Assembly: GCF_910592395.1 (NCBI RefSeq)
Contig: NC_088314.1
Span: 3,780,001 to 3,844,000, forward strand
Length of the DNA: 64,000 bases
Direction of reading: 5' to 3'
Origin: Lineus longissimus
Lineage: Eukaryota; Nemertea; Pilidiophora; Heteronemertea; Lineidae
In this document: one piece after another, positions 1,991 to 54,000 of the stretch
Numbering within the stretch: position 1 is the first letter of the stretch
Layout of the letters: the number at the start of each line of letters is the position of its first letter
Program-made: the position numbers and the translations under genes
The notes under the pieces: generated by a model
Told to the model about the DNA's origin: nothing
The model's database searches: none
Seen by the model: only the letters and a program-made list of their open reading frames with translations

Positions 1991-4478
1991 TTAATTTGAT
2001 TGACCCTCACTCCTGAAGAGTATGCCTTGACTGGTTTCAATACGGTGTCGTTGACTGACCTGAGCCTTACTTTGATAACCTTTAAAAACATTCATGACTT
2101 GGAGAAGTACAGTCACTATTGTGATGTCAGCGGGGGAACTTAGTTAGATGATCCTAACCGGCAGCATCAGGCTAATTACCTCGATCGGGCTACCAGAAGA
2201 AAGTACGGTGTTTTGCCTCTCGAGGTAGCAGGAAATCCGAACCCGTTCACGACAACAGTCAAACAAGGATCCATGTTGTTACAGCGCTTATGAAAACCAG
2301 ATAAAATTCTTGTATTAACTTGATAAACGAGGGTTACTAGATCGTGCCAATTGCTCCTGTTCCGTAGTCCCTGCAACATACAGAGCCAACCTGTCATGGG
2401 GTGGTTTTGTACTAATAAGCTAATAAGCCTGGTGAGATATTAACTTTCTATTCCTTGGCGTTGCGCAGCGGGTAAAAAAGAATAGTTTTTTTGCCAGTAT
2501 GATAGAGGCGTTCAACTGAAGCTTTTGAAAATTTGATCTAAACTAGATCCCAAAGATAACAGAAGTCACATTGTAAGCGAATTGGATCATTTTTTATACT
2601 CTCGAAATGGGCCGCAACAATATCGGGTGGTGTGCGTCATACACGCTGAAATATTTGAACACTTTGTTTATTGTTACATCACATTATTTTTGGTAGTGAA
2701 ATTTCATGACAAATTTCCCGAACACGAGCGCCACCGCTCTGACCATTAACTTCGAAAACTTGAATGTGTCCAATTCGAAATCTCAGTAGGCATATTCAAA
2801 TCTCGCATTCAAACTCAAACTGTTAAACTTGAGCAAGCGTTTATTTTTCTCACACAAAGAATATTAATATGTTACCAGTTCTTTTCTCTCAATGTTATTA
2901 TGTCTGGTCACATCCAGGTCCGACCCCTACAGGTGCAGCCCCTTCAAGTTGGCCCCCGTCAATAATAACTGAGCCAAGAACATGTTCCTTTCCACTTCAC
3001 ATTCACTGATTTGGACACTTGGACACGCACAGCCTAGATTCACCTCAGCGGCCTATTCGCCACGTCACGGGAGGTGTGACTCCGCTAAATTTTAGAAAAA
3101 CGTCGTGAGGCACCCTGAAGACGACGCAAAACACCGCGCAATGAAGAACATAAAGATGACACAAAGATAATTTCGCTGTTTGATTCTTGTTTTCTGACTT
3201 TTGACAGTTGCTTCATCTTGTGGGTGGGCCAGCACGAACGAATCGTGCCTTTCAACAGCACTTACAAGATGCACGTTTTTGGAGACAAAGCCGATGACTC
3301 ATTACCTTTAATGGGCCTCACAACGTTATTTTCGCAACCACACGGTTTAAAGTTCACCTGTGGCATTATTTCATGACTAGGCCCCACTTAATTGTCAAAA
3401 TTTGATTGACAGACATCCCAATCAAAAGTAAAAGTAAGGGATTATCATGGAACTTGTTTGGGTGGGTTCATGGCCGATCGATTCTAAAAGGCTAACTCTC
3501 AAGTGGTAGCCTGTCCGAGCGGGGTACCCTTGAGAGCTCTTCATGTCACTGTGATCACATGTCGTGGTGGACAATAACAATGCGACCCATGACATCTTCA
3601 AATTGACATTGTTTCCCAAGTGTAAACATTGTCTGAGGTGGAGACGTACAGTCCATGTGTGCTTCAACAAACTGCGAAGATGGGGTCGCTACCTCGTGAT
3701 ATGACAGAGACCCTAGCCACAACGACGGGAGAACAAAACTACTGGTCTGAAGTAACAGAAATCAGTGTCCCCTAAAAAGGTGTCCGATTGCGCGATGTGC
3801 ACCATGGCCGTATTTTGAGAACAATTGGTGGTTTATTCCAGACGCTCTATCAGGGGACAGAACTGTCTACATTATACCGTACCTTACATAATGTTCGGAT
3901 CAGGTATAATCGTAATAGCGACAAGTCATCAGAATAAGTGGTGGTTCCATTCGGCACACGTTGCAGAGGGTTGCCGGGCCCTAAAATAGAAGGCATTGGA
4001 GACAAGACTATTGAGGACAGTTGTTGACTTCAAGGGCCCCAAACTATGATAACATGCTGTTGGAACTCCTACTGTCAGGAATTGTCCACAATGTAACTGG
4101 GAGCCGGGGAAAGCTTTGCTTGAAATCCAGAACACGCAACGTGGCAGCACCGTACAAGACAGATGAAGACGATTGGCCGTCGCAGCGCATTCTGTATAGA
4201 TGTCACCACCTACCTGAGAGACAAGCAAGTCGAACTGGTTGTGCCTTTGTCTTCAATGTCTCGTGATTACAGTCACCGCTGGTGGTACTTTCATGAGCTC
4301 CCGTGTGTACTACATAGGCTAACGTCGTATGGACTTCTCCACTGATGATGAGCTGTACAGTATGTTGTCACTTGTATGCAGAGGTGTGGTAGTACTGGGT
4401 CACCGCTTGTTTGTGTGTGTCCCGGCTTTTGCACAGTCAGTGTAATGTTAAAGAGGAATCCCGTCTTTTAAAAAATGA
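1991..4478. other. Upstream non-coding stretch
   Basis: Contains only short open frames on both strands, for example a pair of opposed ~80-99 codon frames at 3929-4266. None has recognisable domains or convincing splice sites. I see no gene here. Confidence 0.45.
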
Positions 4479-9000: not shown

Positions 9001-12000
9001 ATGCAATGTCATTGTTCTCGTAGCAGTGCTTGGGTCTCTCTCAGTCTCATGTCACAATGTTGCTGCTTGGTATTGACCCTGTAATGCAAGAAATCAATTG
9101 TTCTCGGCCATGAACTTGAGATGGTCCCTAGCGTGAAGGGTCCTCTGGGTGGAGTGACTCAACTATAGGATAATACAGTCAGAGATAATAGTGGATTGAT
9201 CCTGACCACAAATTTAGTCAGATGGGTAGTTTGTCTTCATTATGCCATTATAATGCGGATTATGATAGAGTGCCTAGGCTATAGTTTTGAAACATGCATT
9301 GGATGGATTACATACATACCTTTTTTGAACTCAATATGCTTACAAGTCATGGCAGTGTGATATTTGGCTGGTTGAGTTGAAATTATGCATATATTTTCCT
9401 CAAAATTAATGGGAAAGTGTGTAATCCCCCCCCCATATTTTTAGGATTTTTTAGTGCCTATCAGTCTGTCCCAATTCGTTGATTATGTTGTCTGTGAAAT
9501 TTTGTTATTTTTATCATGTGATGATACAAAGAGGGTCAACTGAGCACATTGTCATAGTAACATCCTCTTGAACTTAGGTAATTGTGGACAAATATTTATT
9601 TTGATTGGATGAATGAGATGTCCTTGATATCCTCCTTCAAAAGGCACCAGTCGTACCAGTTGGATGTTGATTGTGTGGGAGAATATATCTGACGCAAAAC
9701 TTCCACATCTTATCCTGAATTTAGTGGGTGTTATCAAAAATCTCCTATGACCAAACAGTATGTCAATATGTAAATGTTGACACTAGAGCAATGCACTTGA
9801 TGAACTGGAAAATGTGTGTAAATGTTGGCGGTTAACCCTTTCTGATCTGTCATCACATGCCAGAGTCGTTTCGTAATCTTGATCAGAGTCGCTGTTACTG
9901 ACGGAGAACTGGCTGCCTTGGCTTACGACTGATGCGATATGGTACAGTTGTGGACACAAGATTGACAGGTCAGTTGCCTCATCTCGCCATTGCGTGGCTT
10001 CTCAAGTATAGATAGTCTTTTCCACCTTGTTCTTTGTCACTGCCAGTTCCAGCCCATGGTTCTTTCTCTTGTTGTGCGCACCAGTCTAGGACTTGTCAAC
10101 TTATCACTAAGCAACATGACTTGTTTTGATAATTGGGAAATCTTACTGAAAACAAAATCATGTTCTTTGAAAGATCAATTGCAGTAAATTAGATTTCAGT
10201 CAGTGGCCAATGGAGATAACGTTTAGAAGAAGTATTCCAACTGCGGGCTTGATTCAAAGCCGTTTAAGTGTCAAGTCGTGTTGGTGGCCTTCGGCCTTTT
10301 ATCCCTGTCATCTCTTTGGCTGAAGTTAACAAAAACAACAACACTTTGATTACCCTAGTTGTACACCAGCCCAGTGAGGGACATGTCTGAAGACCGTCAC
10401 TTCCACTTCCTTTCTCTCAATTGTGTAATCAGTAGGGTGTCCATCTATCACCCTAATTACGTGTTGCATTGTCATTGAGTGGTGCTGTGGCGACATCCAC
10501 GACTGTCACCTACTTGATGACGTCCTTGCCTGGTAGTGTTCAGGTACCTGTCATCGTGAACTTTCAGTTCTCTGCTACTTTTGGTCTTTCAAGACATCAG
10601 ACTCGTCGAGCTCTTTAGCCTTTGGGGACAAAACACCTCTTTGGCCTTTATTTACTTCTCAGACATGTCAGAGAAACTTTTCAATTTGGCAGAAGTCCTA
10701 GTTCTACCAGAAAAATGAGTTGTTCGCTTCTCCTAATGGAAAACAACCAAAGACTGATGCACCATGCCTAAGTGCACACAAAATATTGATATAAGATATA
10801 ACATTTTGTAATATTTCGAAGCCCGGATTATATGTTTAAATTTGGGGGTTCCCTTGGCTCTAGAACACTTTTATATTTGACTTCTGATAGTGAGGAACTT
10901 TACTTAGTGGATTTATGGACTACATAGGCACCATACCAAATTGGTGCACCCCTCCACGCTATACACTGCTTTTGTGGCTTATTCTGTGACTTTGCTTTAG
11001 ATAGTTTTATAGTTGGTAAGATTCTATTTCCAGCTTTGACATAGTTGTGTGATTGTTCAGATTTTGAGCCATTTCATAGAGTGCATCATTACTCCATGCA
11101 CTCTGCCATATTGTCTACGCCATGCACTCTGTCGGCTGGATGTTGGCAAGATTTTGCCGTATTCCTTTGCCTAGTTGTTATCCTTATATTTTGATATCAC
11201 AAGGTTGCTCTATGCTCCGAGCTGAATCCAGGTGTACTATTTCCACTTGCAACATGTTGCTTCTTGTAGCATTAGAGTATGTTGCTGTAATCATGCCAGG
11301 TACATACACACAATTCCCATTGATCCAAGCCATGTAACATCTAGACTATAAAGTATGTATGTTACATCGATCTCCTCCCCTCCTACACTGCTATTCCTCA
11401 CAACAACTTGCTTGTTTACATCAAATATTCGATCCTTATCAAAATAGGTCTAGCTTTGATTTAACCCTTGGCGCTTATGAGGCGCCATGTGGGACTTTAA
11501 TTGTTTCCCTAAATTATTTCCAATAATGTCACTGTTTCAAACAAAAAATGAACAAATCAGAAATTATTTCATCCAATAAAGTACGTTTTAGAAACAATTA
11601 TTTTGTATTCAAACCAGCGTTTTTATTTTTTAAACCATCGGTTTATTTTCAAACCAGGAAAACACACACAAATTGTTTCCATACCATAGTAGTTCTGCAA
11701 ATCCATGGTTTGGAAACCATACCAAGTTGTCCTTTTTATTATTTCAAACCATGTGGATTCGCAAAGTCATTATTTCAATGGTTTACAAACCACGAATATG
11801 TGCGTAAAACATTCTTTGCATCCCATGAAAAATTGTATACGCTACAAACTTGTGGTATGCATATAATTGTTTTACGCAGCCACGGGCGCCATGTGGGAAT
11901 TAAATTATTTGACGAAATCATTTGAAATAAGCAAATTATATCGAAATAAATGAGTGAACGAAGTCAAGATTATTTCCAAACCATAAATTTGCTTATTCCA

Positions 12001-15000
12001 ATTGTATTCAAACCATTTACTGTTCCTATCGATATTGTTTCAAACAATGAATTTGCTCTCTTTTGATTATATTCATCCAATCAAACAACGTAACTTTATT
12101 GTTTTCAAATAATACATTTTCTGAATATCCGTGGTTCCAAATAATCAAACTGTCTCGAAATGATGGTTTGTTAAATAATCAAAATTAAAAAAGTCATGGT
12201 TTCTCAAACCAGGAAATTGTCCATTGCATTGGATGATAAACAATCACGCACAAAATCATTATTTCCAAACTATCACTTTAACAAACTAATTGTTTCAAAT
12301 CATGAAAGTATGCACGAAATTATTTGTATACAATCTAATTGTACTCATCTAATGTTGATTATTTGCATCCCAGCAACGTTTTTTCAAACCATGAAAACTC
12401 GAACTCTAATTGTTTCCATCCAATCACTTCCAAAAGTCATTGTTTCCATCCAAGCAAAACTACGTTCATGGTATGCGCACATGGTTTGCGCAGTAGACGG
12501 GTTTGAGTTTGAACTTAATAAAACCCGTCTACTGCGCAAACCATGTGCGCATACCATGAACGTAGTTTTGCTTGGATGGAAACAATGACTTTTGGAAGTG
12601 ATTGGATGGAAACAATTAGAGTTCGCGTTTTCATGGTTTGAAAAAACATGCAAATAATCAACATTAGATGAGTACAATTAGATTGTATACAAATAATTTC
12701 GTGCATACTTTTATGATTTGAAACAATTAGTTTGTTAAAGTGATAGTTTGGAAATAATGATTTTGTGCGTGATTGTTTATCATCCAATGCAATGGACAAT
12801 TTCCTGGTTTGAGAAACCATGACTTTTTTAATTTTGATTATTTAACAAACCATCATTTCGAGACAGTTTGATTATTTGAAACCACGGATATTCAGAAAAT
12901 GTATTATTTGAAAACAATAAAGTTACGTTGTTTGATTGGATGAATATAATCAAAAGAGAGCAAATTCATTGTTTGAAACAATATCGATAGGAACAGTAAA
13001 TGGTTTGAATACAATTGGAATAAGCAAATTTATGGTTTGGAAATAATCTTGACTTCGTTCACTCATTTATTTCGATATAATTTGCTTATTTCAAATGATT
13101 TCGTCAAATAATTTAATTCCCACATGGCGCCCGTGGCTGCGTAAAACAATTATATGCATACCACAAGTTTGTAGCGTATACAATTTTTCATGGGATGCAA
13201 AGAATGTTTTACGCACATATTCGTGGTTTGTAAACCATTGAAATAATGACTTTGCGAATCCACATGGTTTGAAATAATAAAAAGGACAACTTGGTATGGT
13301 TTCCAAACCATGGATTTGCAGAACTACTATGGTATGGAAACAATTTGTGTGTGTTTTCCTGGTTTGAAAATAAACCGATGGTTTAAAAAATAAAAATGCT
13401 GGTTTGAATACAAAATAATTGTTTCTAAAACGTACTTTATTGGATGAAATAATTTCTGATTTGTTCATTTTTTGTTTGAAACAATGACATTATTTGAAAT
13501 AATTTAGGGAAACAATTAAAGTCTCACATGGCGCCTCATAGGCGCTGAGAGAATTTATCATGAGCGTTTACTGTGGCGGTGGCGAGGTACCGGAGTGTAT
13601 GTGCTACTGAAGTCTCATCCTGGAATACCAGGGTCAGTCACATGCTCCTCCCTCGCATTACATAAGCTTGGTTATTAGTGTCGAGTGTTGGACATCGTGG
13701 ATCATGCCTGGCGATCATCTTTGTCATCTGATCATGTGGTAACATCACAGACTCCATTGGGAGCGAGATGGAGCACTTCTGATATTTAGGCTATTAGTCT
13801 ACCAATAGCATCAGTGACATCAGTAACCTAGCTGCTGATCCTATCTCGGCCTGTCTCCATTGGCAATTAATCTTGTTAACCTCCTGGTGTATCCAATACA
13901 CCCTAATCTCATTGTGGATTGTGGAGTTGATGACTTCTGGCAGGCTATGTATGAATTTGGATGCCGGGACGCTCAAACTGGGTGCTCATGTTGCAGAATA
14001 GGGCCAGTGGGCTGTTTAGGCCAGAATACAATAATGCTTGACATTGCAACATCAAAAAATGTTGATTTATCCATTGATTGTCCGATCTGACTGATTGTCA
14101 TGTGTGTTGATTTGTTAGGCCTACAACATGTAGGTTAATATCTGCTCGTTAACGAGGATGCTATTGTCTCTTTGGAACGATTAACCCCAATCATGCTAAA
14201 TATGACTACTTGTAAACTGATGGTGACCATCCCCAAGTTCCTTGTTCATCCACTCACCCCGTTGGAAGTAAAAAGTGAAAGTAAGCTACCTATATAATGT
14301 ATGAGGACTATAGGCAGTGATGTCTTGGCCCTACATATCGTTGACCATCCTGAATTATCATGAGGTTCTGGGCATCTTCACCATCTCCTGGAAAAGATCA
14401 GATCTGAGTGACTGTAGCCCTAGCGGAGATGTTTTGGATGCCAAAGGCAAAGTACATTGGATTGGTTAGTACAGGACTGGTTCATTCAGGTACACAATGT
14501 GGCAGCACAGACATTGTATTGTAGTTCCCTATCAAATAATTCAAGGGTTAAACTACATGTATAATTTCTTTGTTTCAATCCTATTTGTTGGGCATTTAAT
14601 TATAAAATATCTCTCCTTATTATTTTAGAGGACATGTGCAATCATGATAAGCGCTAATTTTTATCTCCCGATGATTTATGACAATTTGTGCATGACGTTT
14701 CATTTGATTGAGATTGATATCGAAAAATGTGGAATATTGGCATTTCAACTCTAATTTGTGTAGTCTTTATTATTATCAAATGATAATTGTCTGTGGGGAA
14801 TTAGCATGAATGTTTTATTTTAGATTCTGGCAAATTCTTCACAGGGTGTACCAGGGTGAGGAGTCCATGCAGTTACCCTATTAGTTCAGGCCGGCCCAAA
14901 GATCAGCACAGAGTCAATGAGACAATGATTTGACTTTCCATTTCCAGGATGTACTGCTTTTCATATTTAACCATTGAACCATACGCTCCTAGTCCTAGAA

Positions 15001-36000: not shown

Positions 36001-39000
36001 TTTTGGCTTTAAACTTGTCGGGGTCTTGCGACCTTGGAGAAAAGTTATGATTCAGTCCGGGTCCAAATCTGGGACCTGCATTTTCTCTAGTCTAATGATG
36101 TTACGCTCTCATGCTAACAGATACGAAGACAAGCCACTTGTTAAGGAAGTGCTTAGTTGAATACGCACATATTGGAGAGACTTGAATTGATTTTGCCCTT
36201 AACTGGTTTTGACAACATCAAATTGTGACTATTAGTCACTGGGGATATTTTTTCTAGATGATTGGAGTCGCATCGCAAGTTACGTGATCTTGGAATTGGA
36301 TAGCTGACAATCATCAGAAAGATTGAAATCATTGAGAGAAGATCAGTCGAGGATATAATTGAGGAAAAAATATTGCGACGAAACTGACATAGCAAGCTGT
36401 TTCAGTAGTGAGGGAATTAGGTTTTCCAATATTTTGAGTGACAATCTTTCAAAACGTGACGGAAACTTTACAGTGAAGGAAGTAAAAAACAACATCACTG
36501 GCTATTTGCCGACATTGTGTACCTAGATTTCAGAAATTGAATGTGAAACTGCTTGTGAACTTTCAAAAGGGAAGGATTTGGCAGGAACTATGAAATCCGG
36601 TTGTAATAAGATCACATGCCACAGTCATTGTAATTTGATTGGGGATGTGTAGAAAAAATGGAAAAACGTTTCTGCCAGTTATGAGTATGGGAAGTCCAAA
36701 ATGCTTTTGCATGACAGGATGGAAAAAACACTCGAAGATTCAAGTTTCTGTTACTGAATTTCTCTCATGTTCGGTTTGAGTTTTCCTGGTTTACTATTTA
36801 TATCATTTGAAGGACTCTTAATACCAGAGGTGGTCATTTGGGCAGAATCGTCGGAAGATTCAGTCAAGACTTTATAAATCTCCCTCAGGAAGGCGGATTC
36901 ATTCATTTCGCAATTCGGAGGAGAAGTCTCTGCATTCGTTTCAAGAGAACCAGGTTTGTCATTGCTATTGTCTGGTAAGAAGAGTGGGTTCAACCTCCAG
37001 CTGTTATTACAACTGATATCTGGGTGCAAGCTTTTACCGTGTTATCATATCAGGTATGACCTTCTGTCTTCAAATATTTGGCCATGTGCACTGTGACTCA
37101 TATTTCTGAGAGGGCATCTCTAGCGTAGGTTGTGCTTTTGTATGGCTTGAGGACAATTTATTTTGGGATCTAACGTCTATAATCACTGGAGTACATAATT
37201 GATGTGTTTGTGCAAGAACCCATTATCGTTATGTAATCGTTTGATGCATTCAGTGTTGTTGCATCTCCACCTTCATACTCATAGTTATTGGTGATTCAGG
37301 GACCTTTGGGTGATAAACGTGTCTGTCTCTTGCTTGTGGGTAGTGGGCATCTGCATGACTGAGAGTTGTGGCATCCATTGTGCTTACGCAATGCTTTGTG
37401 GAATTGGGTTCTTGACCAGGAAGATCTTGTGGTGATTCAGCCTTTGGCAATCATTTGTATTGGGTATTTCTTCATATTTTAGTATTTCTGTGAGCTGTGG
37501 ACATCAATGGATTCAGTGCTTGGCATCCAGTGGATTGTTTAATACATGTAGGTAGGAGTAGGACAAGTGACAGCTGTCAGTCAGTATCTCATCCTTATGT
37601 ATGTCTGGATGTTCCACCATCTGCTGGTCTAGAACACATTCCTTGATAATTTGTGATCAGCGGTCATTGTTCCACAGATTCTTCAGCGTGTTTTGATAGT
37701 AACCTCTCCGTGATAATGAGATCTGGACATCCTAGTGGACATGACCTATGACTCATGGTCTTCCGTGGAAAGGGTCGGGGTTGTGACCTGTGAGCTTTTG
37801 TTGCGGACGCGCCGTGGTGATTGTGATATTAGTGTACGGATGTATTGTATTGAACCCTCCACAATTTCAGGTTAGGTCTCGGATCAGTGGGTCTCAATTG
37901 ACTGTTCCGCATATCGTTTCGAGGAAGGGGTCCAGCCTGCTGTGTGGATTGGGTGCAGACTTGTCAAACATTTGGAAGTACTAGTTTTGTCGATGGAGTC
38001 AATGGATGCATGAACTTTGCTGGGAGCCTCTGTTTTCTTTATAGAGTTTTGATTGGCCTGCCTATTTTCATTCATGTAGTCAATGGATATATTACTACTA
38101 CTAGGAAAAGTATATGGGATACTGCATTACCCTGCATGCTCAAGGATTAGTGACTAAAAGTGACTAAAATCTTGGATATCTCCAAATCGACTTGAAATCT
38201 CCTAAAATCATGGGATTCCAATCTTGAGTATTGGATACCATTAGATACATTTTAAAGAGTTTCAGCACTGTATCGATTCGGAACTTAATATCAGTATCAG
38301 AGAGGTAGCTATGTTGTTCAAAGAGAGGATACCGACGATGACATACTATGCATCTGACAGGTGAGTCCATCATGCAGATCTTGATTGTGATGAGATTGAT
38401 ATCATAAGCCCCCACCCTCAGTGTTGACGAAAATCCAAATGGGAATATTTGAATTTGTGGTGGGAATACCCTCTAAGGTTCGATCACGGAGCTATGCAAC
38501 TAATGAGTTTGTCCTCTCCATCAATACAGGTATCATGTTGTATAAGTCAAGTACATGTAGATGGCGTACCTGGTGCCACTTCACGCCATCTGTGTTATTG
38601 TTGCAACTCTTGTCAACATGTCGTGCTGATTTTGGCTTCTCCGGTTAACGACTTTGTTTTCCTTCATTGTTTTATTAGCACCTTTGGTAAGAAAGCTAAT
38701 GTTGACACTTGATTCCTAACAGGGTGGCGAAGGTGAAGTCTGGCACACCCAATGGGGGGGGGGGGGGGGGGGGGGGGGCTATGAAACATACCTTGGTTTC
38801 TCTGTGAGGGTTTAGGCCTATACTTTATTATACTGCTGTTCAGTGTAACCCAAGACAAAGAACTGGAAACTCACACACATGTACTGAAAAGGTTTTCGGT
38901 TCAGGCTGACCAAAACAGGTGCAAATATATGCCTTGGGCAGCTGCAGTCGAATTGTCAGACTTAAAAAGTATTTTGTTTCATTGTTTTCTTTAAATTTCC

Positions 39001-42000: not shown

Positions 42001-45000
42001 TGAAGCTTATTTATTCCAAACCCCTCTGTGAAGTTCATTGAGCGCAGACCCTAAAAAAAGCATCTTGTGTTACGAATTTGGTTCTCGAATATGTTGCTGC
42101 ACACCGCAAGAGATGTTACTTTAGGACAGACTTGTTGGAAAGGCAATACTTAGACCTGTACATTTCAAATTCAAATGTTGGAAAGTGTTAATGCACACTT
42201 TATATCTATTATATTGACATGTTCTTAATCAAAAGTAAGAATGATATAACCTCATTCCTGCTTGTAATCAATTGATAAGCAGATTGCAAGTTTATTAATT
42301 ATAGCCGCACTTACACCACCTGAAAATGGACCACCAATCTTGGTTCGGGAACCAATGCCGCACCATCGAAAATCCACCAAGCGCTTACACCAGCGCTGCA
42401 TTTAGTTATAAAATCCGGCTACAGATGGCGCGCAAACAATAAGCAGAACGCGGAAAGCCTTGGCAGAAAGCGCCATTTCGAAAGCGCCGCCTGGAGCCGA
42501 ACCATCTAACTAGCTAATTGCCGAACCATTTGCGCGTACAACACGACAAAGCCGAGCTTTTAACAAGCCGGGCGAATTTGGACCATCAAGCTTGGTGGGA
42601 CAAATTCGCTCGGCAATTTGTATCGGCAATGGATTGCCGAACCAATTTGTCGCGGCAATGTGGTGGTGTAAGTGCAATTGGTCCACCAATATTTCGTGGT
42701 GTAAGCGCAGCTTATGACTCACAAACGCATAATTATTTATGTAATCGGGCAAGGTTATCATTATCATGTTTTTTGTACAAATGCGGGTGTCTTTAATTAG
42801 TTCTGGTTCTAATGAGTAACTTTTACTATGATGAGGTTTCCTAGTGACTCAAACCTGTAACTTTTAGTTTTACACATAACCAAGTTATCATTAATTAGGC
42901 CAGGTGTAAATGGCCAACAGCAAAAGATGAAAGTAATAGCAGTTTGGGCAACCTAATTAGGGGTTTTCCAGGAACTTTATAGTGATTACTAACTAAATTA
43001 CTAATGATCAGTAGTTGGAAGAGGGGCTATAACAGATCAAGGTGATGAAGACCATCTGTCCAGTTTTACCCTTTTGTTGTGCTCTACTTATGTTGCATCT
43101 GCTGTGGGTGGGGCCCAGGAACTGGTGTGTGTTATCATTTTTAGTTTGAGGCCTAGTTGGGCCATGATTGTCTGTGTCCTGTCTCCATACAAAATACATA
43201 CGTCTAGTGAGGGACTGAGCAATCATCACTTCAGTGTTATTACTTATTGGCGGGACTGTATCTTTATGAGATGTGGATTGGCTTAACTCATTTTAGCAGT
43301 GGTTTTCTAGAGATGCTATTTGCTAGAGGTTCTTAATGCTTACCATTTGATAGGGGTTATACTTATATCTGGATCTGACACTGTTTGCCACCTTAATTCG
43401 TTCAAAACAAATTCTGTCATTCATCGTTAACTTGAATGGTTCAGATGTTCTTTGAATGTTCAGAACGCTAACAGCAATGGGTTGTAGTATAGGTTATCAT
43501 CGTTTCTAAAAATAAACACTTGTAGCATGCGCTACACAAATCATGCAGCGGTGAAGAGAAGTGGGTGGCACACCAAGTAAAAATATTTGCAAGTAGATTG
43601 GGAAAATGAAATGTAAAGAACAAGACAATGATTTCTGTTGAAATTGATTTGCCTTTCGGTAACAAAGTTGTGATTCATTTCTGAAGAAAGTCCGACCTTG
43701 GTGTTTAACCCTCTCTATCCCGAGAGCCGACAGGTAATGGTGGCTGCATGTTGACTCTTCAGGTGTTTTTGAGATACCGAACTTCTCCACAGAAAGTCAG
43801 TCCATTTCAAGAATATAAGCTGAAAAATCCTGTACATTTGTGTCCAGAATTGTATCAATGTACAGGTCGTGTCCGCTAGACTTGGGATGAAGTCAGTTTT
43901 GCAGTGTGTTCAGAACTTAATGCGATGATTTGAACTTCCACAAGAGCTATGCTGCATTAAATACTGGCTCCAACTTCAGACATGCACTTAATTTGAAAAT
44001 GTAAACACCTGCTAGCCGCCATTTGCCGGCACAGATCGTGGAAAGGTCACGGAGAGTCTGCCGCCAGTGGGTGCTTGGAAATTCCATGAAAATTGGATTG
44101 GAATATTATGGGATTTTGTTTCCCAAGGGGGTTGGAGTTACTGAAGTTTGAGACCAATGGAGGATTGGTCGAGTTAGTGCAACCTAGGTGGTACATTTAT
44201 CTTAGTTTTTTTGTTTATATCGATTGGTCTTGGCATCTATATTTACTGTATATAATTGCTGTCAATTATTCCCCAGCAATTTTAGGTATGTCCAGTTTCG
44301 TGGTAGGTACAGGTGTCATCGTTTCAGCATGGTTTAAGAGGAATCTTTCTAAAATCCTGTATCGGTTGGAGCATGTGGATGTCAATAAGGGCATCATGGC
44401 CCTGGCAGCTTGCCATAGGGACTTGAACCCTCAACCTCCAGTGTCCCACCCTTTATTGAATTGATAACAACGTATCTGTCCAGTCATTCTAGAGGTATGA
44501 CATCTTAATCAACTTGATGAAAAATATAATATTAACATTTTATGACCTTTCTACCTTGGTATGGTATTTCTTGTTTAAACACTTGGGAAACTCACTTGAC
44601 CTGGAAATCAAAGTCCACCTTCTCCAGCGCCTCGATTCGGTAGTGTTGAGGGCACTTTGGTGTGATAGGCCTGCATTATTTCGTGTGCATACATAGCCAT
44701 AGGTATATATGATACTCGCTTTCATGTACTGTGTCTTATTTCTCAAGTTTGGGTCATCTCGTTCAGGGGACAGAGGCCAGTGTCATTAAACAATACATGA
44801 TATCAGACATTGAATAATCAAAAGTGATATGGACAATTGGATATATTGAAGATAGAATGATGGAAGACTCAGCAGCAAAAGTTGGAAAGTTTCATTGAAG
44901 AGTGAAATAACCTTTGCTTAACACTGGTCTTCAGTGGGATTAGACAATGGGGAGGTACCACTTCCGCCAACGCAATGTGATTGTCCCAAGAAGAGGCAGG

Positions 45001-48000
45001 ACCAGAAGGTCTCTCTGTCTCCCAACAAGGTAGGATCCGGCTCCTTCCAGCTTCCCCAGTGTCCTTCCTCATGGCTTTCTTCTTCTTCGTATCACTTCAT
45101 CGCATCATCTCCACACCCATGAGTGATAGAAATGGCCAATTCTTGTTACTCTTTTGTAGTTGTTCCAAAGGGGTTAACCTTACATTATTGCCCGTCAAGT
45201 TGTACTTCGGACGAATCAATATGTTTTATGACGATATGCGAAATGCTCCTAACTACCTGTGCCCATTCAGTGTAAAACTTGTTGAGAAGTCCCAATCCAT
45301 ATCGCTGCTTCAACTGTTTATACCACTTTCATGTATACAGGTTTTGCAGTGGAAAAAAGCAGAAAAAAAGTAATACATGCTGTTCAAATGCACATGCACT
45401 CTGCTGCACGTAGGCGTTCCTTTACAACCCCCGTTTTTTTCGAAGCGAGTTGGTTCTCATGTTGTATCTGTAGGGTTAAATTGTCTAATCTATTCTTCCT
45501 AGGCCTATAGGAAGCTCATTGAATGCGAGATTTGTTATACAGAGTATGTTATGGTGGTGGTATTGTTCAGTGTCAGTGGCGTGTAGGTGCCATTTCATAG
45601 TCATTGAACAGGCCTATATGTCATTTTAGGCCAGTCATTTACTGGCTGTACTTCTGTGGACTTGAACGCAGGATTCGAATGTCATCCTTGCCAAGTCGGT
45701 CTAAAAAGGCCTCATTTGGTTGCATTTTGAGGGAGTTATGGTCTCAGATGGATGATATACCATAAACGCTTCCAAGATGATGGGAGTTGGTCTAAAATCG
45801 TTCATGATAAGGTAAGCCATTCGATGAAAAATGCGGCTGGAAATATCATGCAGTGATAGTTGGTGGAAGTCTGTCAGCTTCTAGACTTTTTCATCTCACT
45901 TGCCTACCCGGTTTTACAAAAGAATGTTGGTAGGTCTTGCCACCAAACCTATAAGCTTGTACATTATAGGCCTAGCGTTTGCTTAGAAAGCGGCACTTCA
46001 AACATAATAGAATGTCTTGTAAGCCAATTATCTATCATTTTGGACACAGTGTCTTGTGGAAAATGGTAAATCTCTTCAAAATTGCTAAGCTGTAGTTTTG
46101 GTGGTGGTGAGATCTCAGCATTTCCCATTGGCTATGATAGCTTTGAATTAGGGTCACCATGTGATGTTGAGGAGCACTCTACTTGTACAATAATGGTAAA
46201 GCTGCACTCTGCTTGGACCACAATGATGCCCTGAGCACTCTGCTTGAACTGCTCTGATGCTCAGCAGCACTCTGCTTGGACAACAATGATGCTCAACAGC
46301 ACTCTGTTTGAACCACTCTGATGCTCTGAAGCACTCTATTTGAACTGCTCTGATGCTCAACAACATTCTGTTTGAACTGGGATGATGCCCTGCACCATGC
46401 AGCAGTTGGGTCTGATATTGAGCTAGAACTGTAGTATTACATCGTTTTAATGTCACAGAAGTTTAAAAAACTTTTTTGTGGCGTGATGGGGTATGACAGC
46501 CATTCAAAAAACATCCTGACATTCGGTATGGGGTCATTATTTGTGTAATGATAATTGCCGAGCCATGCCCTACATAGGTTTTTTATTTGCTCACAATATC
46601 AATGATATAGACATGATGAAATGAAGATCATGATATTCTTTTTGGTGCCATATGGCGTCTATTCATCTGAGAATTTAACTGCTGTACTATTATTCTGACT
46701 GCTGTCTTTACATACTCTACCACTCTTAGATGGCGGACAATGATTGGCAATTTGGTGGTTGTGAGGCAGCTACTGATCAGGATATGCTGCAACTGGCAGA
46801 CACAATTTGTAAGCGTAGTTCCTGCCTGTTGTAAAAGATGATGGTAGCTTATGTAACTCTGTTAGAAATGGATGTTGTATCAATGAAGATATCGTTATCA
46901 TGTATAAATGTCTGGAAATTATGATTGAAATTGGTTATTTATGCAATTTTATGCAAGTTTTATGAAATGGTAGTCTGTAGGCCTACACGTGTCATTCACG
47001 TGTGGCAGTGGAGTGTAAGGCAATGAGGGGCCCCCCCCAAATTGATAGGTGATTGCTAGTATGTTTAGGTGTTGCCTCTATATGACACACCATTCCAAGA
47101 AATATTCAACATCACAGGAAATCGCTGTCAATGACCCTGCAGGTGCTTTTATACACAATGACATAAACCTACAGAAGTATCCCTTATAGTCAGAGTTCAC
47201 CTGCTTTGCTCATTGAAACAGCCTTCCCGCCCTTAATGCCAAATATCATAATGTTATGTGGGCGGCCTAGACCTGCATGTCTGATCTTGTGAAACTGATA
47301 CTTTGATCCGGGTTTAAAACGTTTCCATTGGGCCTGGGATGTACATGTACCAGTCTTGTCTCATCACCTGATTCAACCATTACAATAAAACACATCTGTG
47401 CTACGAAGAATCAATACGTTCACAGAAATTCAGCATCTGATGTGCGGTGCCGAGCTGCCATATTGCGCCTATACAGAGCTTATCTATGACGGTTATGTAT
47501 GTGCATGCCCTGGCTGTGTGACAGCGATATCTGTAGGATAACTGTACATTAGAGTATTGGTGCTGATTGTGTGGGCATGGTCGGACTGGTGTGACAGACA
47601 TTGTTGGTCATCGAGAGTTTGGATATTTCAGTGTAGGATTCTGGTTTTAGCAGACCAGCAATGGACATAAACATCTATTTAGGAGTCCACTTGGCTGGTT
47701 GGAGCTGGTTTTGAAGGGGAACAAGATGAGGTAGGTCCAATACAGCTGTCACGTATTATATACAGACATCTTGTCACTGTTACTCTAGACCCAGGTTGAA
47801 GGGAGTTGGTTCTTCTGTTGTTGCCTTCATTTCTTAGTTCACTTCCTTACTGCCCCACTTGATCGGATGGATATCAGCCATTTGAAGGGTCCTCGTACTG
47901 TTTGGGCCTTGATATGAAGTGCGACCAGATATCTTGTGTTATGATGAAGGTCAGTTGCAATTTGGACAGTGTCACTTTACATGACAATCAATCGACTTCC

Positions 48001-51000
48001 TCCGGTTCCCACAGGGATTCTAGTTGCTTCATTGGTGAAGATATTCGATCTCCTGGATCCTTTCAGTTCTCAAAGTCCCTGACATAATGTCAATACCATA
48101 TTCCAATCAGTGGTTGAAGTGTATTGGCAATGCAATCTTAAAGCGATGGTGTGGGTTTTACAACTTGGATGGATAAGGCTGGTATCTGTCACCCAGGCAA
48201 ATAAGTTTCCCAGACTGCAGTTTCAGTTTCTCGACCCCAGTTTTTAGGTTATTCCCAATGGCAATTTTGCCTTGGTGATCATAGCTTAGCCAAATTGTAC
48301 CCCGAAATTATGTTTATTCTTTGAACTGCTCTAGCTTGACTGCTTCTAACCTACACGTTTTACAGTTGAAATGCTTTGACTTCAGGTAAATGGGCTTTCT
48401 TAAGCGATTCAACAACGCGTTCTTGTTTGTTGATGTCTGGCGACTTTTAACAAATTTCTGGCGACCCATAGAACATTCTGCCAGTATGTGCAGTTGGCCT
48501 ACAAAAGCTGTTGTGTACCTATGAAAAAAACTTCTATTTTAGCTATTGCCCATAAATTTGCCCACAAATAAACTCCTTTAGTTCAATGTACCACTTGGTG
48601 CTGATAAAATGTTCCCTGGTGCTGATAAGATGTTCCCCTGGGAAGGTTTGGGTCTGTTTACGCTAGATGAAACATCTGGCAATCAGCATGGCACCTCCAA
48701 GTTATTGACGAGTGACTCTCTTGGGTCGCATTGCCGGCACGAAGTGTAAGATGATTGTGGTTGATTGCAGAGTGATTCACGGGTCCCTAGGGGTGCAGGG
48801 TTCATCCCCCACAGTTACCAGAGACCATCACGAAGCTTAAACAATAATTTGATGCCAAAGTGAAATACACCTCCTTGTGCTTAATTTTTGAGTCAGGTCC
48901 CAAAGCCCCCACCCTTCGGTTCTCTAAGTGTATTCCCCTTTACCAAAGACTAGACACGCACAGCCCAGTAAACACACTTTTGCTAAAATTAACTAGATAA
49001 ATACGCCAATTATGTCAACAGCATCATTGTGTAAGAAAAAACATATCTGCGGATCCCATGCTCCATTTATGACTGGGTATAGATGAATTCTCTTAAAGAA
49101 ACTGCCAATTTATCAGCAAAACAGGAGCTTGCGTGTCATGCTCAATTGGTTTTCTGCAAGTAAATAGCTTCTCGGAGAGAAAGTTCCTAATGTTAGCAGC
49201 CATCATTACAGCAAAAACATGAGCTTGGAGTGTCATGGTCCATTTGTCTTCTAAAATTGATGCCAGTGGATTCTAGTACGTCTGGTACCATTATCTAAAA
49301 AGCTATTGTTGTGGGGAATGATAAAGTTATTCTCGATTGGTTTGGGATGGTTTCAGAACCTGTGTTCGGCAGATGATTTCATGTTAATAAGGAAAGAAAA
49401 GAAATACCTCTATCCTGTCACATCCATCCGCCCCCCCCCCCCCCTGACAAAATGCAAACTACAGCACACAAAGGGAAGGAACATGCAAGGGCTTTAGGAA
49501 AGTCAGTAGGCATGATGGGGCAAAGACCACCTGAGGATCACCAATTGCCACTTTCCATTGTTCCATGTTCATTTTGCACCAATTACCATGAGTCAATTTT
49601 ACTGTTTACTTTTGTGACGTTTTGTTGTCAAATGATCACCTTATTGTCAACATCAGACCATGTTGATACTTAATCCTAATCCTATAGTTCTTTTGACCTT
49701 ATTACTCGGGGATTATGACGTGGGCAGTTGTTGTGATTATGTTTATAGCACAAAATCCATAAATAAGTCGTTGACTAATGTCCTGTATTGTGTATGGTAT
49801 GTGGTCACATATTTTGATATTTGGTCATCACAGAACTTTGTGTGTCAAATATTCGACAAGAACTTGGTAAGGTAGAGTCGCTTCTGAGGTTTGGTCTTTT
49901 CTCTTTGCCTCCCCATTGATTTATTTGATGTTAATTAGGCTTGCACTATTAATTAGACCAGTTCATTACCAAACAAAAGAATCTTGTACTCAAAAATTTG
50001 ATTCATTATGATGATCTCTGAGCATTCAACAAGAAAAGTGATTAATGATAATTGCAGAAATTTGGTTCTTTATTTGATAGCAGTCGACCTTCCTGACTTT
50101 CTTCCATTATTTGCTGTCAATTTTTAAGAACCTTGAAAACAGCAACAAGCCAGTGAGCTGTAAACACTCTGGGTTCAATCGACATTTTGTACTTGTCCAA
50201 ACCTACCAATACCTTTCTTCCAGAACACTGAACTTGTATAAAAAGGGTCTGTGCAGAATCGGGAAATCAGCCAAAAAACATTGATTAATGCAATGATCAG
50301 CTGATGTTTTGAGATCCATTTGACCCTATTGATTCAAAGTCTGTATTTCGAGTTGTGTCAAACCAAATCAAATTGTTAACTTCTTCGCATAGAGACATAC
50401 ATGTAGTTCGCCAAAACTGTTATTTTCTTGATACACACATGAAACTTATACTTCCAGGTGGCATGAAGTTTGATTCTCCTCAATTTTCCAGATAATTACA
50501 ATCCACATTTAATTGTTGTTGCCACATATTTGCAGCCTAGTAAAGCTTGCCTCTGTTTTCTCATTCTAGTGAGCTGACAGCACTGCCCCCTGGTGCTGAG
50601 AAGTCACACCTGGAGAGGTCAACATCACTCAGCACCTACCCAAAGGAGCATAGCAAGCTGTCCAGGACCAGCCGACAAAAAACGGTCATCGGACAGACAC
50701 AACTGCACCGGCAACACTCGTGTTTACATCCAGAGGAAGATCAGCGAGTGAAACAGTCTCGCTCATGCAACACGTATGAATTATCGCAGGATCTCCAGGA
50801 TAAGCAGTTAGAGATGCTCGAGCGCAAATACGGCGGCCATTTTAGGACACGGCGGGCCGCCACAACGATTCAACAGGCATTTAGGAAGTATTCTATGAAC
50901 AAGAATTTTGAAAAGTTACGCCATGCTAAAGCGGAGAAACGTATCTCTCGACGCTTTTCGGAGTATAATCGTAGTGCGTCTATGTATGATGAAATGGAGG

Positions 51001-54000
51001 AGGAGCTGGATAATGAAGGAACCTTGAAGGCAAATATGGGGAAAGGCCATTCGTTATCGCCAAAACAGCTCGGACGAGCGCATACAGTCGCTTTGGATAG
51101 AAATTATAACGCAAGCGGGGATTATGATGATAGTGATGTGTGTGAGGGTGGTGAACCCAGCAAAAGATTAGAAAGGTCTGGGCGTGTGGATATTGATGAT
51201 AACAAGACCATGGACCAGTTACCGTTGTCAGAAACAAATAATAACCGGAACTCATACCCTGAATTGAATGACAGCAGTCCGGGTGAGTCTTCACGAGGGT
51301 CACCTATCTCTACTGAGGATTTACATAGTGTCAATTTCGAAAATTTGTTAGAAAGTCGTGAGACGGACATTCTTAATGACAGCTTTCACAGTGACGGTAG
51401 TCAGGACTCGGGAACGGGTGCCCACAGGGGTGGGAATCAGTCACAACGGTCTATACCAAAACGTGGGAAGAGGGGACCTCCTCCTCCCCCACCACCTAGA
51501 TCAGACAGTTATAAAAACAGTATTTTGATGCAAAAATCTCAGTCACAATTGCAGAGGGAGGAACCTCTGTATGATAATTTACATGGACATGGGCATTCTG
51601 AAAGTGCACCAATCATAAATAGTGAAGTTCAAATAAAAGTAGACTGTGCCTCACCGACAGACGACCAAATGTTTGACCAAAACTCAAAACTGTATGCAAA
51701 CCAGGAGGTAAAGTTCCGAAATCGTAAATGTATCTCAGACAGTGCACTCGGTGGTTCGGGTAAAACACCTGACGCGTCGCCAGTATGGAAACGAAAAAGT
51801 GCGCCGGCCCCTACTAATTCAACAAGTAACTATAGCCTAAAGTCGGACACGAAACGCATGAGCAACATCTCCGAAAATAGCGAACCAGAAAGTGTGTCTG
51901 AGGAGCAAATGCGTTACTCCACGAGTTCCCAAAGTGGGTCAGACACTGCTTCTATTGGGAGTAACAGTTTAGGTTCAGACTTTAGCGGCTACCAGCGCTC
52001 CATGGAGAGTATAGGCTACCAGCGGAGCGCTAGGGTTAGCATGGAGTCGCCACATATGCTGCTGCCGCCGAGGATAAGTGACAAGCAGCGGAAACGGGAG
52101 TACAGAGTAGGATTAAATCTGTTTAATAAGTAAGTATACATCTTGGTGAATCCTCTTTATGAAGACCTGCTTTCTCAGTCTGATGCTCCCTGAAAGTTCT
52201 TGGAGGAATTCTTTCAGGGCAGGATATGTCTCCCCGGGTCCGGAATCTTGGCCAGTTGAGCTTTGCTTGAAAAAATGTAGTGAGAATGATGCACGTCTTC
52301 TCCTGTGGGAAGCAACTCCTTTGATGGTTGGTGCTTGCATTCTCTGACAGAAATTGATGGCCACAGATTTAAGCGAGAGATCAATGGGATAAGATCTTAT
52401 CTGCTCCAAGTGCAGTCCATGAGAGATTAAAGGAGAAGCCCGGTTCTCTGGCCTCAGTTGTCATTCTGCTAAATGATTCTTACCAGCGTGCGTGATAAAT
52501 TGCATTTCTACGTGAAATTGGTCTTGGCAATGAGAGCCAATTTACTAATAGTATAATGGACTGTTATACGCATTTCGTGGCGGAATGGCCGGTTATTGGG
52601 CAAATGAGTTATATAAGCTGCCCCAGACATGTAAGTACATGCAAACTGCATAAAGTCTGGTCAGTTGTACACTTTACATGTATCTATGACAGTAACTCCT
52701 TCAATGGGGTATTTGACCCAAAAGATGCTGTCTGTCGGCCTAGCTATCTGACTGGCTCGCTGTCTTGCACCTACAGCAGTTGTCTTCAACTGCTTCCTGC
52801 CCATTTCTTTGCACACCAGTATCTACAACATACTCTACTGTTCAATACTGATAGACGTACAAGGAGGAATTCACCAACTGAAAATCGTGAAGTCCATTCC
52901 CTTGGCAAACAAAAAACAAGATGATTGGTCAGATGTAAACACTCCTCCTCTTTGTTAATGAAATTAATTAGGACACATCTTGTCGATTTGAATTGTTGTA
53001 TGGCAGTTGGTGTGGTTGATTGAATGAGTAATTGTCCCGAAGTGAATGGCCCTTGATGGGATTTACTGATATACAAGGACAAATTGTGTGTACTTAGCTA
53101 TTGAAAAATGAGATGTCGGGGAAAGGGTTGACATGTGGCCATGTTTTCATTGAGGGTGGTATTCAGTTGGTGAGTGCATTGCTAATCACTGGTAGTACTA
53201 CATGGGCGGGCTTCAGATTTCATGGAACCGCATTCTTTCAGAAGGTATTTTGATTATTTACTCGATGTGATGCAGTCTTGATCAAGACATTTTGCTAGTA
53301 CAGAGAATTTGAATTTGACACAGTGGCTTCATGCTCTCAGAACACTGCACTATACTAGGCCATCGAGAGTGATGAAGGCTGCAGTGACAAGATCAGCAAA
53401 TAATGAAATTATTGGTAGGTCTCGAGTCCGATCAAGTTAGATGCGAATGGAACCTGAACCAACCCATATCGATTGGACGGCTCATTCCATAAACCTAATC
53501 ATGACGAATCACTCATCAGTTATCCATCACATCAGCCAATACACCAGCAAGAAACAATCTTTCAGTGTCCTACCAGTATCGCCTAACTGTTGCCTTGACG
53601 TCATTACAAAGTATCATGTGATTGATTTTCTCGGCTTTTGTGTGAACAGCGATCTGTCCTCAAAGATATGTCGATGGTGCGTCTATAGGAATTTTCTTAA
53701 GGCGATATTGCGTTGGCTAAAGGTCATAGAAGCTTCCATCTGAGGAATGACTTTCTTACAATGCCAAAAATTTGTCTGCCCGAAGATGGTTCTAGAGAAA
53801 AGTGTTCCAAAGAGTTCAGTCTCAAAAAGACACCGAAAAAGTACTAGATCTTGTAGTAGTGTATTTTATAATCGAATTCTGAGTTATTCTAGCACAGCAC
53901 GATAATCACAAAGCATACTCTTAGTAGTGCAATCTATGACTCCCAACTCCCTATAGGACGGCGCCAGCTACATCACCAATACATTACATGGATCAACAGA

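What the first reader, a model, noticed from the sequence alone, without database searches (positions are those of the whole stretch)
11471..13545. A 2.07 kb near-perfect palindrome whose arms are phased arrays of a quasi-palindromic core
Two ~1.03 kb arms are separated by 16 bp and differ only by a few substitutions and one 9-bp indel. Each arm is a chain of ~30 variants of AT[T/G][A/G]TTT-n-AA[A][C/T][C/A]AT with unique spacers. Measured core steps are 32, 32, 33, 32 and 33 bp between 12034 and 12196, and 31-34 bp elsewhere. That is close to three helical turns, so the cores would lie on one face of the DNA. This is structure at three scales: core palindrome, phased array and giant palindrome. 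It resembles FB-type foldback elements in principle, but I know of no described family with this motif. Phased sites suggest cooperative binding by a protein such as a transposase or an architectural factor.
Basis: partly seen in the sequence, partly recalled or inferred. Interest (0 to 1): 0.88.

Follow-up and report, generated by a model that had tools for sequence, protein, structure and literature searches.

The report
Foldback transposon with phased palindromic sites
The 2-kb DNA palindrome is a jumping gene that lacks its own enzyme, apparently from the IS3EU group, in an animal genome that is probably a lancelet, and its arms carry dozens of regularly spaced mirror-image sites that look like docking points for the enzyme that moves it.

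Summary
The palindrome is real: a 2,065-bp element at 11476-13540 with arms of 1,029 and 1,020 bp, a 16-nt centre, and 7 substitutions plus one 9-nt indel between arms. The element starts TATGAGGCGCC and has TA..TA termini. It belongs to a dispersed family (68 matching stretches, a lower bound). 12 of 12 independent two-ended copies measured have exact 6-bp duplications. A 15,931-bp relative on contig 11 shares the outer ~455 bp of the arm (about 98%) and encodes an IS3/IS481-like integrase-type transposase (rva_4, E 8e-66) and a HECT-type gene. These features fit the known IS3EU/GingerRoot superfamily. The core array holds in cross-validation, is concentrated in the terminal repeats of the large relative, and its substitutions tend to preserve the motif. 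Spacing falls into ~32-bp and ~20-bp classes, so helical phasing is approximate. Best reading: a non-autonomous foldback IS3EU element with an array of dimer sites for its transposase. New variant of a known kind; binding is inferred, not shown.

The parts
11476..13540 (.). whole non-autonomous foldback element, 2,065 bp, TA..TA termini
   Evidence: Other copies start at the same base; exact 6-bp duplication outside it; same-length copy L025 at another locus with duplication GCTTGA
11470..11475 (+). left target-site duplication GGCGCT
13541..13546 (+). right target-site duplication GGCGCT
11476..12504 (+). left arm (1,029 bp); outer ~455 bp about 98% identical to the terminal repeat of the 15.9-kb element on contig 11
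12521..13540 (-). right arm (1,020 bp), reverse complement of the left with 7 substitutions and a 9-nt gap
12505..12520 (.). 16-nt centre GAGTTTGAACTTAATA, identical in L025 and in the short-type palindrome L030
11513..12454 (.). array of 33 quasi-palindromic cores (15-18 bp) in the left arm; steps mostly 29.5-34 or 18-21.5 bp; strictest run 11969-12273, steps 29.5-33 bp
12571..13503 (.). mirror array of cores in the right arm (29 sites at score 12; 30 in the left arm at that score)
11481..11494 (+). terminal GGCGCCATGTGGGA module (outer copy)
11885..11898 (+). inner copy of GGCGCCATGTGGGA, 404 bp further in; short-type elements look like the product of deleting the 404 bp between the two copies

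Best explanation
It is a non-autonomous foldback DNA transposon of the IS3EU/GingerRoot superfamily in an animal genome. SHOWN: copies at many loci share ends with TA..TA termini, exact 6-bp target duplications, and arm differences that travel with the element; a 15.9-kb relative with the same outer terminal repeat encodes an integrase-type transposase; the array of inverted half-sites is concentrated in the terminal repeats and its substitutions are biased towards keeping the motif. INFERRED: the N-terminal helix-turn-helix region of the transposase, as dimers, binds the inverted half-sites; the array of ~33 sites per arm (18 per terminal repeat in the large relative) raises local transposase concentration and helps pair the two ends; a transposase supplied in trans then cuts at the TA ends and inserts with 6-bp staggered strand transfer. 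The near-perfect palindrome would be the extreme outcome of losing the interior, kept because only the ends are needed.
For: Ends and duplications: 12 of 12 independent two-ended copies measured by script have an exact duplication of 6 bp and no longer; a 13th (L047) shows CAATAC by eye, with one extra T at its left tip; three further copies (L057-L059) repeat the duplications of L040, L039 and L035. No other fetched locus showed two recognisable family ends. Large relative C11:11564346-11580276: 15,931 bp, duplication GGAGGC, terminal repeats of about 676 bp, 99.85% identical. Its 403-aa frame matches rva_4 (E 8e-66) and the NCBIfam IS481 (4e-16) and IS3 (1e-10) models, the latter two below their cut-offs. 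IS3EU is described as TA..TA with usually 6-bp duplications (PMC10045372, passages). A 1,990-bp internal-deletion derivative exists (L023). Transmission as a unit: variants at alignment columns 17, 144 and 829 and the 9-nt gap are shared by the same side in W and L025, and no listed column groups the two arms of one copy against the other copy. Array: cross-validated; 18 sites in each terminal repeat of the large relative and 2 in its ~14.6-kb interior; the two-core pattern occurs 175 times in the genome against 2 for the reversed control. In 6 of 6 diverged terminal repeats (72-80% identity) core substitutions kept the motif better than the mean of a spacer-derived null: 114 (L041), 1 (L042), 0 (L044), 1 (L043), 6 (L045) and 18 (L046) of 2000 simulations reached the observed value.
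Against: No binding data. The inner part of the arm (beyond ~460) does not align with the large relative, so the element that mobilises this one may be another. The closest relative of the transposase by sequence (contig 15, 62-74% in pieces) has no core array within the 20 kb fetched (2 isolated sites), and neither it nor two other relatives (L063, L064) had locatable ends in 9-20 kb. In-register core versus spacer identity in diverged repeats differs by only 0.02-0.09, with 23 to 356 of 1028 mask shifts reaching it. L041 is weak in the motif-retention test (114 of 2000); the six diverged repeats are probably related to each other; and the matrix was trained on the window arm that served as the starting point. 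HTH matches are below Pfam cut-offs. The structure model is poor overall (mean pLDDT 44.5, pTM 0.29); only residues ~21-120 reach 54-78 by 10-residue block.
Confidence: 0.78

Rival explanations
1. Same transposon, but the cores bind a host protein (a transcription or architectural factor) and serve to drive or silence the element rather than to pair its ends.
For: The half-site ATTGTTT resembles animal SOX/HMG-type sites (recalled, not tested). The array is also compatible with promoter use in the large relative, whose genes lie between the repeats.
Against: The non-autonomous window palindrome, with no recognised gene, keeps the full array. The pattern is almost confined to this family: 175 matches against 2 for the control, and of the roughly 100 places listed all but three fall in known copies.
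Confidence: 0.2
2. The array is the decayed remnant of an old ~32-bp tandem repeat and has no function now; the motif survives by chance or recent amplification.
For: Other foldback elements carry tandem repeats in their terminal repeats (Tetris, passages of PMC4079207). In-register conservation of cores over spacers is slight.
Against: Spacers are largely unrelated while cores persist, two step classes exist, and core substitutions are biased to keep the motif in the diverged repeats, most strongly in L042-L044 and weakly in L041.
Confidence: 0.15
3. The palindrome is a source of long hairpin RNA giving small RNAs that control the family.
For: A 1-kb near-perfect inverted repeat would form dsRNA if transcribed (from the sequence).
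Against: Does not explain spaced cores, exact ends or duplications; no transcript data here.
Confidence: 0.05
4. Assembly fold-back artefact.
For: Near-identical arms are a typical artefact signature (general knowledge).
Against: L025 and L030 show the same palindromic structure at other loci with different duplications, and arm-specific variants are shared side by side between W and L025; the flanks differ and carry a target duplication.
Confidence: 0.01

Closest known systems
IS3EU/GingerRoot DNA transposons (Repbase IS3EU; PMC10045372, passages read)
   Same: TA..TA termini, 6-bp target duplication, IS3/IS481-like integrase-type transposase in the large relative
   Different: Foldback derivatives that are nearly all terminal repeat, long arrays of inverted half-sites, and a HECT gene in the large relative. 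None of these is in the passages I read; searches for IS3EU with HECT gave 0 papers and for foldback with IS3EU 1 paper, on oyster satellites, listing only
Galileo (P superfamily, Drosophila; PMC3688188, abstract and section list read)
   Same: Long foldback-like terminal repeats with multiple transposase binding sites; the abstract suggests higher-order transposase multimers. The closest functional analogue I found.
   Different: Different transposase class (THAP domain, P superfamily); the further sites lie in tandem repeats, not between largely unrelated spacers; duplication length differs (recalled)
Tetris and FB-type foldbacks of Drosophila (PMC4079207, passages)
   Same: Foldback architecture, non-coding copies, internal repeats in the terminal repeats
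   Different: 8-10 bp duplications, attributed there to Mutator; tandem 220-bp repeats; no transposase source found there
piggyBac/piggyBat palindromes near the ends (PMC11707139, passages)
   Same: Imperfect palindromes near the ends, bound by two domains of a transposase dimer
   Different: Three on the left end in piggyBat instead of 18-33 per end, different superfamily; there subterminal sequence inhibits activity

Membership tests
IS3EU/GingerRoot superfamily | TA..TA termini | tested here: met
   TATGAGG at both ends of W and of the other two-ended copies, except one tip in L030 (right, TTTGAGG) and one in L047 (left, TATTGAGG)
IS3EU/GingerRoot superfamily | 6-bp target duplication | tested here: met
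   12 of 12 independent two-ended copies, exact and no longer than 6
IS3EU/GingerRoot superfamily | IS3/IS481-like integrase-type transposase | tested here: met
   In the large relative, not in the window element: rva_4 E 8e-66; IS481 and IS3 models E 4e-16 and 1e-10, below their curated cut-offs
IS3EU/GingerRoot superfamily | transposase groups with IS3EU/GingerRoot in a tree | not tested
IS3EU/GingerRoot superfamily | window element mobilised by this transposase | tested here: inconclusive
   Ends and outer ~455 bp shared at about 98%, inner arm not shared
Foldback (FB-like) elements, as an architecture | terminal inverted repeats that make up most of the element, little or no coding capacity | tested here: met
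   2,049 of 2,065 bp are arms; no Pfam hit at E 0.001 in its frames of 125 and 130 aa
Mutator-type foldback / Galileo | 8-10 bp duplication (as for Tetris) or P-type transposase | tested here: not met
   6-bp duplication, integrase-type transposase in the relative

The most novel reading that the evidence does not exclude
IS3EU transposases in this lineage assemble as a long ordered multimer along a ruler-like array of inverted half-sites (18-33 per end, ~3-turn and ~2-turn steps), giving specificity by number and spacing instead of by one strong end site; the foldback palindrome is the minimal substrate left by that mode, so arm length and array are under selection. This would be a second, unrelated origin of what was proposed for Galileo.
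Probability: 0.35. Interest if true: 0.62.

Novelty: new variant of a known kind. Interest (0 to 1): 0.5.

Why it matters
Many foldback elements have no known transposase, and the passages I read ascribe most of them to Mutator, with exceptions such as Galileo. This one has ends, duplications and a coding relative that point to IS3EU/GingerRoot, a superfamily related to bacterial insertion sequences. The array of inverted half-sites gives a directly testable idea of how an IS3EU transposase finds its ends, and motif retention across diverged repeats makes that idea more than a resemblance.

Tried and rejected
Rejected: assembly artefact (other copies); a prokaryotic host (391-Mb genome; IQSEC-like exon; also no tRNA or Rfam hit); protein-coding ~33-bp repeat (no Pfam hit in the arm frames); strict 10.5-bp helical phasing (R 0.65); a generic excess of palindromes (none clear).

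Led nowhere: ends of other transposase relatives, contig 15 (L061-L062, 20 kb), L063 (9 kb) and L064 (10 kb); two single-arm copies (L028, L034) followed into extensions of 10 kb (L065) and 6 kb (L066), no right end with the expected duplication; structure model of the transposase too poor, so no fold search was made; sequence search of solved structures gave only one hit at E 0.3 for the transposase. The search with the left flank, meant as a first step to an empty site, did not complete. The viral, metagenome, prokaryote, phage, plasmid and E. coli collections were not searched. Repbase and Dfam were not available, so whether this family already has a name there is unknown. Papers on amphioxus MITEs were seen only as a listing. 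The GingerRoot paper, looked up under a recalled DOI, was not held.
Full report
WHAT WAS CHECKED. The window holds a palindrome with arms 11476-12504 and 12521-13540 and a 16-nt centre. Between the arms there are 7 substitutions over 1,020 aligned positions and one 9-nt gap.

HOST. The window lies in a 391-Mb genome of 30 contigs. An open frame at 50547-52130 matches IQSEC1 (E 2e-21), so the host is an animal. Of contigs 1-20 I took stretches from 18 (not 13 and 18); these are 13.6-29.4 Mb long, and contig 29 is 0.22 Mb. Lancelet species are reported to have 18-20 chromosomes (PMC12500494, one passage). That the host is a lancelet, perhaps Branchiostoma belcheri, is my inference and was not tested.

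A DISPERSED FAMILY WITH CLEAN ENDS. One arm finds 68 matching stretches in the genome, the window's own included (40 of 88 candidates were scored, so this is a lower bound). I looked for family ends in W and in the stretches fetched as L021-L060. Twelve independent copies have both ends, and 12 of 12 have an exact duplication of 6 bp and no longer: GGCGCT, GGAGGC, CCCTGT, TACATG, GCTTGA, GTCATC, CCCTGC, GTCTTT, GCCAGG, ATGGTG, AATGCC, AGTGGC. L047 adds CAATAC, read by eye, with one extra T at its left tip. L057, L058 and L059 repeat the duplications of L040, L039 and L035 and are probably duplicated regions or haplotigs. The remaining loci showed one true end or none and could not be tested.

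TRANSMITTED AS A UNIT. L025, at another locus with its own duplication, is also 2,065 bp long. At alignment columns 17, 144 and 829 its left arm has the letters of the window's left arm and its right arm those of the window's right arm, and the 9-nt gap is in both right arms. No informative column grouped the two arms of one copy against those of the other. The palindrome was therefore most likely copied whole and did not arise anew at each place. The 16-nt centre is identical in W, L025 and the short-type palindrome L030.

TWO SUBTYPES. Short ones (L030-L035, L037-L040 and others) start with TATGA joined to what is arm position ~415 in the long type. The two positions share GGCGCCATGTGGGA, so the short type looks like a deletion of 404 bp between these copies. 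The reverse direction is not excluded.

A CODING RELATIVE. C11:11564346-11580276 is 15,931 bp long, with terminal repeats of about 676 bp, 99.85% identical, and duplication GGAGGC. A 403-aa frame on the minus strand matches rva_4 (PF24764, E 8e-66). NCBIfam IS481 and IS3 models match at 4e-16 and 1e-10, below their curated cut-offs. By recalled analogy with retroviral integrases the acidic triad would be D150, D207, E242 (the script numbered D150, D207 and a neighbouring E239; the choice of E242 is mine). On the plus strand, exon-like pieces belong to a HECT-type gene: the last piece alone matches PF00632 at 7e-10 and the five pieces joined at 4.7e-11; the other four alone gave no HECT match. 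A second copy of the left ~9 kb lies on contig 14 at about 98%, interrupted by insertions. L023 is an internal-deletion derivative of 1,990 bp. The window arm matches this element's terminal repeat at 97.6-97.8% over arm positions 6-460 and not beyond, apart from short internal repeats.

CLASSIFICATION. The passages of PMC10045372 state that complete IS3EU families always have TA..TA termini and usually 6-bp duplications, and that GingerRoot has 6-bp duplications and mostly TA..TA. Both are met here, and the transposase type agrees. A tree with reference proteins could not be made.

THE ARRAY. Half-site matrices trained on one half of the arm predict sites in the other half far above dinucleotide shuffles (score 8): 14 versus 1.0, and 16 versus 1.7. 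Steps of 30-34.5 bp number 6 of 13 and 12 of 15, against 0.00 and 0.03 in shuffles. Both trainings began from the same seed taken from the arm, so they are not wholly independent. Over the whole arm there are 33 sites, with steps clustering at 29.5-34 and 18-21.5 bp and one each of 40.5 and 53. In the large relative 18 sites lie in each terminal repeat and 2 in the ~14.6-kb interior (score 12); five lie in its part 461-676, which the window arm does not share by alignment (score 8; shuffles 0.3). A two-core pattern matches the genome 175 times, against 2 for the reversed control; of the roughly 100 places listed all but three (C1:27005945, C3:5565040, C10:18295131) fall in family copies.

IS THE MOTIF KEPT? 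Six diverged terminal repeats (L041-L046, 72-80% identical) align with the outer arm. Core identity exceeds spacer identity only slightly in register, and not beyond what shifted masks give in most. But the substitutions that did occur in cores keep the motif: against a null using the spacers' own substitution pattern, 114, 1, 0, 1, 6 and 18 of 2000 simulations (L041, L042, L044, L043, L045, L046) reached the observed score. An earlier, simpler null gave 26, 0, 0, 0, 0 and 5 in the same order. Some out-of-register alignments keep cores and not spacers (L041: 0.83 versus 0.48, 0 of 1028 shifts); others show no difference. The six repeats are probably related to each other, so they are not six independent tests, and the matrix was trained on the window arm.

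HELICAL PHASING. The ~32-bp class is close to three turns and the ~20-bp class a little under two. Pooled steps give R 0.65 at 10.5 bp and up to 0.78 at 12.25 bp. Quantised spacing is shown; one-face phasing is only approximate.

MECHANISM. Most likely the inverted half-sites are bound by dimers of the transposase's N-terminal domain. Pfam gives weak HTH matches (0.0009 and 0.007, below cut-off). The model, made from an alignment of four sequences and poor overall (pLDDT 44.5), puts helices in residues ~21-120, the only part with moderate confidence, in a pattern that could be two helix-turn-helix units (inference). The array would concentrate transposase and aid end pairing, as suggested for Galileo (abstract of PMC3688188). 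piggyBat shows that palindromes near ends can be bound by two domains of a transposase dimer, and that subterminal sequence may also inhibit (PMC11707139, passages).

NOVELTY. Searches for IS3EU with HECT gave 0 papers and for foldback with IS3EU 1 paper, on oyster satellites, seen as a listing only. The search for palindromic, subterminal and amphioxus transposon terms listed six papers, none holding the word amphioxus. These cover only the open library; Repbase may hold this family under a name. I rate it a new variant of a known kind.

Noticed in passing
C11:11564346-11580276 (L021-L022): A 15.9-kb IS3EU-like element that carries a HECT-type gene on the strand opposite its transposase.
   Followed up: partly
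window 42469-42718 and 59191-59440: A 250-nt repeat, two copies 98% identical.
   Followed up: no
window 46200-46397: Minisatellite with a 32-bp unit, about 5.6 copies, not resembling the cores by eye.
   Followed up: no
window 50547-52130: Large exon-like frame with an IQSEC1-like stretch.
   Followed up: partly
window 38754-38778: Run of 25 G.
   Followed up: no
C29:120715 and C6:7120269; C29:167791 and C6:7166547: Same elements with the same duplication or left flank on a 222-kb contig and on contig 6, which suggests an unmerged haplotype or a segmental duplication.
   Followed up: no
L028, L033, L034, L035, L026 just past the arm: These copies share another middle, AGACGGGTTTTAGG[C/T]CTCGTTAGGGAG..., which in some is followed by its own short inverted repeat; in L028, L033 and L034 only one arm was found in the stretch fetched.
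   Followed up: partly
L034+L066 positions 2563-3210: A 216-aa frame downstream of a single-arm copy with a possible Myb/SANT-like stretch (by eye).
   Followed up: no
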